Shown: positions 40,077 through 41,887 of the stretch, in pieces | Layout: each line of letters opens with the position of its first letter | Numbering within the stretch: the stretch's first letter is position 1 | DNA from: Halonotius pteroides | GTDB taxonomy: Archaea > Halobacteriota > Halobacteria > Halobacteriales > Haloferacaceae | Direction of reading: 5' to 3' | Length of the DNA stretch: 64,000 nt | Assembly: GCF_003605635.1 (NCBI RefSeq) | Contig: NZ_QMDW01000001.1 | Coordinates: 62,001-126,000, forward strand | The notes under the pieces: generated by a model | The model's input: the letters and a program-made list of their open reading frames with translations, nothing else | Told to the model about the DNA's origin: nothing | Databases searched by the model: none | Position numbers and translations under genes: made by a program

Positions 40077-40158
40077 GACCCGGTTGCCCACCGCCGGTCT
40101 CAGCTAACATAGAAACACCACTATTGTCGACGACGGACTACCTAATACAACGAGAGAG

Positions 40159-40205
40159 TCCCGCCCTTACCGTGAGGCGGGAGTGTTCCGATCCTCTATC
40201 GGAAC
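40159..40205 (-). other. Two strong hairpins in left end
   Basis: tcccgcc (40159-40165) pairs with ggcggga (40176-40182), and gttccgat (40185-40192) pairs with atcggaac (40198-40205). They lie downstream of the small RHH gene on the minus strand. They could be left-end recognition palindromes or a transcription end for that gene. Confidence 0.6.
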
Positions 40206-40268
40206 CGAACGCCGAACAGGGCGGGCGTGAATCGCGTGCGCTCCACTGAACCATCCACCGCACCGCTG

Positions 40269-40406
40269 CTACTCCTGAGTCTCCAATGATTCTAACCCTG
40301 CTTTTAGAACCGCTGTGTAGGCTTCTGAGAGGTCTAGATCGTTCGCTTCTGCATAGTCTTTGACTCGACCACCGAGCGTGTGTGATATATCGATGTTTGG
40401 TCGCAT
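40269..40406 (-). CDS. 45-aa ribbon-helix-helix-like protein
   Basis: The frame encodes 45 residues that fit the Arc/MetJ/CopG fold. A strand MRPNIDISHTL is followed by two helices (GGRVKDYAEANDLDLSEAYT, then AVLKAGLESLETQE), with the glycine turn and hydrophobic positions expected. It starts 41 bases from the tnpB start in the opposite direction, and a TATA-like gattattatac lies about 27 bases upstream, in the shared AT-rich gap. Such proteins are DNA-binding dimers, often autoregulators or antitoxins. Here it may repress tnpB (inference). Confidence 0.75.
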   Translation of the reverse strand: MRPNIDISHTLGGRVKDYAEANDLDLSEAYTAVLKAGLESLETQE

Positions 40407-40412
40407 ACGAAA

Positions 40413-40440
40413 AGACTTTAAGACTAAAAGTATAATAATC
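40413..40440. promoter_or_regulatory. Shared divergent promoter of tnpB and RHH gene
   Basis: This AT-rich gap contains ctttaag (about 30 bases from tnpB GTG 40448) on the plus strand and gattattatac (about 27 bases from ATG 40406) on the minus strand. The two boxes lie side by side, so one bound protein could affect both genes. Confidence 0.5.
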
Positions 40441-40447
40441 TGTTGTC

Positions 40448-41794
40448 GTGAAGCGCACCAACACTTTCGCCGTGCGCCCGCTCACCGGCGACGATGAGCA
40501 AGTGCTACGGCAAGTGTTGGACGCTTCGGCCGCGCTCTGGAACGAGATCAACTACCAGCGGTTGATACGATATAACGACGAAGACGGCTTCGAGGGCGAA
40601 GACGTATGGGACGCCGATACCGGCCAGCTCGAAGGCCAGTACAAAGGCGTCCTCGGTGCCTCAACCGCCCAGCAAGTGATTGCAAAAAACAGTGAGGCAT
40701 GGCGGTCATTCTTCCGACTCAAAGAGCAGTTCCACGATCCTGACAACCAGCAAGTCACCGAACACCCGGAACCGCCGGGATTCCGTGGCAACGAGGACGA
40801 CGGGCGTGTTCTCAAGGGAGTAATCCGCAAGGACGCTTACACTGTTGAGTGGGGCGACCGATCCCGGCTTGAGTTTGTCGTTGGCGAGGAACTGCGAGAC
40901 AAACACAGCAGCCCGAAAGGCCGCTTCCGACTCGAAATCGTTGGCGACCCTAACTGGCCTGAGTATGACGAGCAAAGCCGCCTTGAGTTGTGGTACGACG
41001 AGACAGATGAGGTGTTCAGAGCTTCGCAGCCTGTGACTGTTTCTGACGATACACAGGCAACTCCACTGGCCGAGGAATCGGCCGCTCTGGATATTGGCGC
41101 GAACAACCTCGTTGCTTGCACTACAACGACCGGTGAGCAATATCTGTATGAAGGCCGTGAGCTGTTCGACCGCTTCCGTGACACGACGCGAGAGATCGCC
41201 CGCTTGCAGTCCAAACTCAAAGAAGGCCGGTACACCAGCCAGCGTATCCGGCAGTTGTATCACCAACGTACTCGCCGCCGCGATCATGCCCAAGCCGCAC
41301 TGTGTCGTGACTTGACCGAACGGTTATACGATGAGGGCGTTGACACGGTGTATATCGGCGGTCTGACCGACGTACTTGACACGCACTGGTCGGTCGAGAC
41401 AAACGCCAAGACGCACAATTTCTGGGCGTTCAAGCAGTTCACCGGGCGGCTGGCTACGACCGCCGAAGAATACGGGATCGCTGTTGAAGTCCGATCAGAA
41501 GCGTGGACGAGTCAAGAGTGTCCGCGGTGTGGGTCAACAAATCGAACACACCGGCGTGAGGACTTGTTAATGTGCCAGTGTGGGTTTGAAGGACACGCCG
41601 ATCTCACCGCTAGTGAGACGTTCTTAGCGCGGCAGACAGAACAGGCAGTCAGGCCGATGGCACGGCCCGTGCGGTTGGAGTGGGACAGCCATGAGTGGCT
41701 GGAGACATCACACTCTCATCGTCCCAAACAACAGCGCACAGACCAGAGTACTGTCACCAGCGACGGGAATCTTGCCGCCGGGGAATCGGCCTAG
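40448..41794 (+). CDS. tnpB: TnpB-family protein, RuvC-II acid missing
   Basis: The 448-residue protein is a TnpB-type RNA-guided nuclease or its derivative. RuvC-I is intact ([12 protein letters not shown]215), the zinc ribbon has C358, C361, C376 and C378, and RuvC-III is present ([12 protein letters not shown]385). At RuvC-II the sequence reads [11 protein letters not shown]. The position where active TnpBs have Glu, and haloarchaeal relatives often Asp, is Gly305. It could therefore be inactive for cutting yet still bind guide RNA and DNA. It starts at GTG; the frame is complete and undisrupted. Confidence 0.88.
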
Positions 41795-41844
41795 CCGAGA
41801 CTCCCACGGGGGAAACCGCGCCGTTCACGGCGTGGAGGATGTCA
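41761..41844 (+). ncRNA. Right end with omega-RNA-like hairpin
   Basis: From the last codons of tnpB to gtggaggatgtca, the sequence contains a gcc/ggc-rich fold and the terminal hairpin cgccg-ttca-cggcg (41819-41832). In related elements this is the scaffold part of the guide RNA and extends upstream into the tnpB reading frame. The guide would be the flanking bases from 41845 on. The 5' boundary is unknown. Confidence 0.6.
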
Positions 41845-41887
41845 TCGACCGTGGTCGAAACACCTCGTGTCCAGCAAAAACAGCCGT

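What the first reader, a model, noticed from the sequence alone, without database searches (positions are those of the whole stretch)
40141..41844. tnpB-only element with a divergent RHH-like microgene
A 45-residue ribbon-helix-helix-like protein is encoded back to back with tnpB, 41 bases apart, with interleaved TATA boxes. An RHH dimer binding there would control both its own gene and tnpB, a simple regulatory module for an RNA-guided nuclease family. The microgene is inside the element and is too short for ordinary ORF callers.
Basis: partly seen in the sequence, partly recalled or inferred. Interest (0 to 1): 0.65.

Follow-up and report, generated by a model that had tools for sequence, protein, structure and literature searches.

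The report
Tiny repressor gene paired with TnpB
Haloarchaeal mobile elements that carry an RNA-guided DNA-cutting enzyme (TnpB) also carry, back to back with it, a conserved 45-residue DNA-binding-type protein whose likely job is to switch both genes down; no such dedicated regulator of TnpB was found in the papers searched, though binding and repression remain to be tested.

Summary
A 45-aa gene (40269-40406, -) lies 41 bp from and divergent to tnpB (40448-41794, +) inside a ~1.7-kb TnpB-only element (40141-41844). Of 80 intact short copies examined from that search, 74 lie divergently next to a TnpB of this clade, 68 of them directly. It is a protein under strong purifying selection (pN/pS 0.06-0.12 to near relatives), and AlphaFold2 plus structure comparison give the ribbon-helix-helix (RHH) topology. 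The gap carries tandem AGAC boxes 8-9 bp apart overlapping the putative tnpB TATA box. The strict box pair occurs once in 64 kb, exactly there, and 36 times in 5 kb of relatives' gaps against 0 in 123 kb of their tnpB genes. Relatives without the microgene mostly lack the boxes. A second 44-46-aa family with an RHH-like predicted topology and its own palindromic site fills the same slot in sister elements, and some elements add a zinc-finger microgene. Best reading: a divergent autoregulated repressor of an OMEGA nuclease. Binding and repression are inferred, not shown. TnpB has an 'Ealt' active site and is probably catalytic.

The parts
40141..41844 (.). TnpB-only (IS1341-type) IS200/IS605-like element; left boundary +/-10 bp
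   Evidence: conserved right end ...GGAGGATGTCA|variable, conserved left end, flanks contiguous without element in same-genus G066
40269..40406 (-). RHH1 microgene, 45 aa (MRPNIDISHTLGGRVKDYAEANDLDLSEAYTAVLKAGLESLETQE)
   Evidence: (pN/pS 0.06-0.12)
40407..40447 (.). shared divergent promoter/operator gap, 41 bp
40413..40416 (+). AGAC box 1 of putative RHH operator
40421..40424 (+). AGAC box 2, 8 bp from box 1
40417..40422 (+). putative tnpB TATA box TTTAAG (-31..-26 of GTG), between/overlapping the AGAC boxes
   Evidence: direct reading; inference for a leaderless transcript
40430..40437 (-). putative microgene TATA box (about -26 of its ATG)
   Evidence: direct reading; inference
40448..41794 (+). 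tnpB, 448 aa, RuvC with repositioned catalytic Glu
41090..41092 (+). codon of D215, RuvC-I Asp (invariant 92/92)
41498..41500 (+). codon of E351, alternative RuvC-II Glu six residues before the zinc finger (invariant 92/92); canonical site is Gly304
41600..41602 (+). codon of D385, RuvC-III Asp (invariant 92/92)
41795..41844 (+). 3' end of the presumed omega-RNA scaffold with terminal hairpin (41816-41824 / 41827-41835); guide would start at 41845
   Evidence: weak Rfam match HgcC 41746-41856, E 0.033, below gathering

Best explanation
The microgene encodes a minimal ribbon-helix-helix repressor that belongs to the element. As dimers it binds side by side to tandem AGAC boxes (8-9 bp apart) in the 41-bp gap, covering the tnpB BRE/TATA and the start region of its own promoter, so it lowers its own and tnpB's transcription together. 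TnpB mRNA is presumably also the source of the guide RNA, so one repressor would set the dose of both nuclease and guide. Shown here: a real, selected protein with RHH-type predicted topology, linkage to tnpB across many genera, a repeated box array in the shared promoter, and scarcity of the boxes where the gene is missing. Inferred: dimer binding, repression of both genes, benefit to the element (keeping a potentially harmful nuclease low in a settled copy, releasing it on entry into a naive cell).
For: Blind co-occurrence: 74 of 80 short copies divergent to tnpB, 116 of 391 genomes, 44 of 86 genera. From the TnpB side (microgene not used in the search): 36 of 77 relatives with upstream DNA have RHH1, 10 have RHH2, 1 shows only the zinc-finger gene before the contig ends, 30 none. 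Purifying selection: pN 0.03-0.05 against pS 0.50-0.60 to nearest relatives. Topology: extended 1-8, helices 9-21 and 26-43, pLDDT 80.8; nearly all top structure matches are RHH proteins (CopG, Arc, MatP, PutA, TraM, MazE/TacA-type antitoxins), best VIA Z 6.1; best profile hit in the PDB is the RHH regulator ArtA, E 0.034. Operator: RGAC 181 observed vs 24 in shuffles, spacing 8 (62x) or 9 (14x); strict pair once in the 64-kb window and at this gap only; 36 in 5.0 kb of gaps vs 0 in 122.9 kb of tnpB. Class without the gene: 8 RGAC in 25 loci vs 217 in 107. In the zinc-finger class the RHH gene has moved 267 bp away but the boxes stay at the tnpB/divergent promoter. Regulator and gap co-vary independently of TnpB in the window's clade (partial r 0.65, 0 of 2000 permutations). 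The second family, RHH2, has a palindrome CTACG-N6-CGTAG / CTATGG..CCATAG at the same place, 61 paired positions vs 29 in shuffles.
Against: No binding or expression data. Fold matches are individually weak (best Foldseek E 0.24; Z about 6 can be a common arrangement) and a monomer only was modelled. Intergenic sequences are related: they form only 5 clusters at 70% identity, so box counts are not independent, and one cluster (L042) carries the boxes in the opposite orientation. Covariation of microgene and gap is partly expected because they are contiguous. 30 of 77 TnpB relatives do without any recognised microgene, so it is not essential to the element.
Confidence: 0.72

Rival explanations
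1. The RHH protein regulates only its own promoter (or acts as a weak activator of tnpB); the effect on tnpB is incidental to shared space.
For: Boxes 40413-40424 lie within the start region of the microgene (-7 to -18) as well as at the tnpB TATA; many RHH antitoxins and copy-control proteins are mainly autoregulators (established knowledge).
Against: The boxes flank the putative tnpB TATA, and in the zinc-finger class they stay beside tnpB although the RHH gene is 267 bp away.
Confidence: 0.13
2. The microgene product is a direct protein inhibitor of TnpB (antitoxin- or anti-nuclease-like), with DNA binding secondary.
For: Tight linkage to tnpB; RHH folds are common in antitoxins.
Against: The protein ends at the second helix (45 aa; helix to 43), with no tail to neutralise a partner; divergent rather than operonic order; within the window's clade its sequence does not track TnpB (r 0.10, 239 of 2000 permutations), which a binding partner would be expected to do; a sequence-unrelated family replaces it.
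Confidence: 0.08
3. The RHH protein works on transposition ends (accessory DNA-bending or copy-control factor for mobilisation by a TnpA in trans).
For: It is inside the element; RHH proteins such as TraM and ArtA serve DNA transfer.
Against: No tandem box pair at either end of the window element: the only other loose pair, 40600/40609, is inside tnpB, and the only strict pair is in the gap.
Confidence: 0.05
4. Chance overlap: the ORF is the antisense of the element's left part and not a gene.
For: Short ORF; many overlapping ORFs in GC-rich DNA.
Against: pN/pS 0.06-0.12, 5 invariant and 8 nearly invariant residues over 45 diverse copies; presence in 116 genomes.
Confidence: 0.01

Closest known systems
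CopG/Arc/MetJ-type RHH repressors (plasmid copy-control CopG, Sulfolobus ORF56, SIRV1 SvtR, ArtA)
   Same: 45-55 aa beta-alpha-alpha protein, predicted to act on tandem short boxes next to its own promoter; best structure and profile matches are to this group
   Different: sits divergent to an RNA-guided nuclease gene in a mobile element; no detectable Pfam/NCBIfam family; DNA binding untested
IS1341-type TnpB-only elements of haloarchaea (PMC3119063; sotRNA/omega-RNA work PMC8303175, PMC12558985)
   Same: tnpB without tnpA, near-terminal palindromes, conserved right end where the guide RNA begins
   Different: the upstream divergent regulator is not mentioned in the passages of these papers read here
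Ealt TnpBs and Fanzors (PMC10711439)
   Same: RuvC-II Glu six residues before the zinc finger; canonical Glu position is Gly
   Different: RuvC-I motif is D-I-G not D-P-G; second zinc-finger half is CxC not CxxC; haloarchaeal
TldR nuclease-dead TnpB repressors (PMC13418256, abstract only)
   Same: TnpB lineage tied to transcriptional control
   Different: there TnpB itself is the RNA-guided regulator; here TnpB keeps D-E-D and is the regulated gene

Membership tests
Ribbon-helix-helix (MetJ/Arc/CopG) regulators | beta-alpha-alpha monomer topology of ~45 residues | tested here: met
   AF2 pLDDT 80.8: extended 1-8, H9-21, H26-43; most top PDB matches are RHH, individually weak
Ribbon-helix-helix (MetJ/Arc/CopG) regulators | dimer with intermolecular beta-ribbon contacting bases | not testable with these tools
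   monomer prediction only
Ribbon-helix-helix (MetJ/Arc/CopG) regulators | profile match to a curated RHH family | tested here: inconclusive
   no Pfam or NCBIfam match above cut-off; single relatives give sub-threshold MatP_C 0.06 and Tra_M 0.058; a curated-model match is not required for the fold, so it is filed by fold and not by family model
Ribbon-helix-helix (MetJ/Arc/CopG) regulators | tandem or inverted short operator repeats at own promoter | tested here: met
   RGAC boxes 8-9 bp apart; binding not shown
TnpB (OMEGA RNA-guided nucleases) | OrfB_IS605 + TNB zinc-ribbon domains | tested here: met
TnpB (OMEGA RNA-guided nucleases) | complete RuvC D-E-D triad | tested here: inconclusive
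   D215, D385 invariant; canonical Glu absent (Gly304) but Ealt E351 invariant 92/92; matches Ealt rule of PMC10711439; activity untested
TnpB-only IS200/IS605 (IS1341) element | no tnpA; conserved ends; guide adjacent to right end | tested here: met
Type II toxin-antitoxin module | antitoxin with DNA-binding domain plus toxin-neutralising tail, usually co-transcribed with toxin | tested here: not met
   protein ends with helix B; genes divergent
TldR (nuclease-dead TnpB repressors) | loss of RuvC catalytic residues | tested here: not met
   D215/E351/D385 invariant

The most novel reading that the evidence does not exclude
The 5' part of these elements is an exchangeable control cassette (regulator gene + operator/promoter) that is swapped between tnpB genes, comparable to phage immunity regions; repressors act in trans, so a resident element silences incoming elements with the same operator. 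RHH1, zinc-finger+RHH1, RHH2 and no-regulator versions would be different control types of one nuclease lineage.
Probability: 0.15. Interest if true: 0.8.

Novelty: new variant of a known kind. Interest (0 to 1): 0.62.

Why it matters
How TnpB levels are kept safe in a cell that carries dozens of copies (31 here) is little understood; known controls act through RNA or TnpB itself. A dedicated, element-borne protein repressor with a visible operator gives a directly testable switch for an OMEGA nuclease in genetically tractable archaea, and may provide a natural off-switch. It also shows that small genes beside tnpB, often unannotated, are worth a systematic search.

Tried and rejected
Chance ORF (rejected). 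Toxin-antitoxin or anti-TnpB protein (no tail, no tracking of TnpB within the window's clade). TnpB as a dead TldR-like protein: first suspected because the canonical RuvC-II Glu is Gly in all relatives, rejected because E351 is invariant at the Ealt position. Immunity-like exclusion: predicted that co-resident copies carry dissimilar repressors; not found (mean identity 0.69 co-resident vs 0.67 all pairs, 9 pairs at 85% or more). Microgenes beside the other tnpB lineages of this genome: none recognisable (several regions had no intact tnpB ORF to test). RHH2 as an RHH by structure search: helices at the expected places but too few matches to decide. Phage records: none; one viral contig; outside Halobacteria only two weak hits. 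Published description of this pair: none in 8 library searches.

Full report
Observation. The window is haloarchaeal (G000:C28:62001-126000, a genome with 31 tnpB matches). A 45-aa ORF on the minus strand (40269-40406) and a 448-aa tnpB on the plus strand (40448-41794) are separated by 41 bp. tnpB matches PF01385, PF07282 and NF040570 above cut-off. The right end of the element...GGAGGATGTCA at 41844, is conserved in 78 of 97 relatives and followed by unrelated sequence, where the guide should start; the left end is also conserved. In a same-genus genome the flanks are contiguous without the element.

Is the association real? The 45-aa protein alone was searched in 391 Halobacteria genomes: matches in 116 genomes, 44 of 86 genera. 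DNA around 90 of these matches was read. Eighty are short genes; 74 of them are divergent to a TnpB of the same clade: 67 at 38-59 bp, one measured as 91 because the alignment was split, six at 264-269 bp. Six lie at damaged or other sites. Eight further matches are the N-terminal part of ~350-aa proteins of unknown function without tnpB. In the other direction, 80 TnpB relatives were collected with the TnpB sequence only. Of 77 with upstream DNA, 36 have this microgene (4 of them with an extra zinc-finger microgene), 10 have a different one, 1 shows only the zinc-finger gene because the contig ends, and 30 have none recognised.

Is it a protein? Against its nearest relatives pS is about 0.50-0.60 and pN 0.03-0.05. 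R2, P3, G13, Y30 and G37 are invariant in 45 diverse copies. No curated family matches. The AlphaFold2 model built on the 45-row alignment has an extended N terminus (1-8) and helices 9-21 and 26-43 at mean pLDDT 80.8. Foldseek and VIA-align return mostly ribbon-helix-helix proteins, weakly one by one (best E 0.24; Z to 6.1) but consistently. The best profile hit among PDB sequences is the RHH regulator ArtA (E 0.034). From knowledge of CopG, R2, N4 and D6 would take the places of its base-contacting strand residues; this is not tested.

The operator. In the window the gap reads ACGAAAAGACTTTAAGACTAAAAGTATAATAATCTGTTGTC. AGAC occurs at 40413 and 40421. Across 89 distinct gaps RGAC occurs 181 times (24 in shuffles), mostly 8 (62) or 9 (14) bp apart. 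A strict pair ([AT]AGAC[TA] at 8-9 bp) occurs once on both strands of the 64-kb window, exactly here; in relatives 36 times in 5.0 kb of gaps and never in 122.9 kb of tnpB. The gaps fall into five clusters at 70% identity, so these counts are not independent. Three clusters show tandem RGAC at 8-9 bp, the zinc-finger cluster shows two RGAC 17 bp apart, and the L042 cluster shows the complement GTCY 8 bp apart. Elements without the microgene have 8 RGAC in 25 upstream regions against 217 in 107. By position, the boxes surround the likely tnpB TATA (TTTAAG, 40417-40422) and lie between the microgene's start and its likely TATA (40430-40437). Promoter positions are read by eye, assuming leaderless transcripts.

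Variation on the theme. (a) In a class with MRPAIDISHGLHGR proteins, a ~70-aa CxxC zinc-finger microgene stands between the RHH gene and tnpB; the boxes remain at the tnpB side. (b) In a sister group (about 60% TnpB identity) the slot holds a different 44-46-aa protein...VNIEVPDDEQYERIKRVKNEHGLTWRGMLIHAADDLE (RHH2). All 20 loci fetched with it have this TnpB divergently beside it; in most the gap is 53-56 bp, in L219 the pair is damaged and in L222 the start is misread. Its model has helices 12-24 and 29-41, but structure search is inconclusive. Its gap has a palindrome whose arms change together (CTACG..CGTAG, CTATGG..CCATAG; 61 paired positions vs 29 in shuffles). (c) On a TnpB tree of 127 elements the five 5' states need 31 changes (shuffled 53), 18 for presence/absence. 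Within the window's clade microgene distance follows gap distance (partial r 0.65, 0 of 2000) but not TnpB distance (r 0.10, 239 of 2000). So regulator and operator travel as one unit and are exchanged between elements. Contiguity alone would give part of this signal; case (a) argues that the operator belongs with the promoter, not merely with the neighbouring ORF.

The nuclease. The canonical RuvC-II Glu is Gly304 in all 92 sequences aligned (the window's own element is in the set twice), but D215, E351 and D385 are invariant, and E351 is six residues before the zinc finger. This is the 'Ealt' arrangement of PMC10711439. The protein is therefore probably an active nuclease, not a TldR-like repressor.

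Mechanism and likelihood. An RHH dimer array on the tandem boxes would block the tnpB promoter and the microgene promoter together: negative autoregulation plus repression of the nuclease (0.72). That tnpB mRNA is the source of the guide RNA is known for other TnpBs (PMC10278001, abstract) and would make this a control of both parts. Published work noted that diverse IS1341 elements seem to be under strict copy-number control (PMC3119063); whether this repressor is part of it is open. A simple prediction of immunity-like exclusion (co-resident copies unlike each other) was tested and not met.

Novelty. RHH repressors and divergent autoregulation are known; a dedicated, exchangeable RHH regulator of TnpB was not found in the library (8 searches). 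I rate it a new variant of a known kind.

Noticed in passing
L099-L110, L211-L230 (upstream of tnpB): A second 44-46-aa microgene family (VSNHVNIEVPDDEQYERIKRVKNEHGLTWRGMLIHAADDLE...) occupies the same divergent slot with its own palindromic site; related sequences occur in 157 of 391 genomes, most of those places not examined.
   Followed up: partly
L048, L060, L063, L118, L140, L143, L151, L161, L163, L174: A ~70-aa CxxC zinc-finger microgene lies between the RHH gene and tnpB, apparently in one divergent operon with the RHH gene.
   Followed up: partly
L119-L126: About 350-aa haloarchaeal proteins with the same RHH N terminus (MRPNVDIPWSIHGRIKEHAEQ...) and an unknown C-terminal part; the one scanned (L121) has no Pfam match; not next to this tnpB clade.
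   Followed up: partly
window 41498-41500 and 92 aligned TnpB sequences: This haloarchaeal TnpB clade has Gly at the canonical RuvC-II Glu and an invariant Ealt Glu, as in Fanzor-like TnpBs, but with a DIG motif in RuvC-I and a CxC second zinc-finger half.
   Followed up: yes
L040, L045-L047, L051, L057, L062 and similar: Elements without a microgene share another conserved leader (TTTCACTTTCACTGTGGATGGCTG...) before tnpB, with no recognised ORF; function unknown.
   Followed up: no
window 41746-41856: The element's 3' end matches the Rfam family HgcC over its full length below threshold (E 0.033); HgcC RNAs may be related to TnpB guide RNAs.
   Followed up: no
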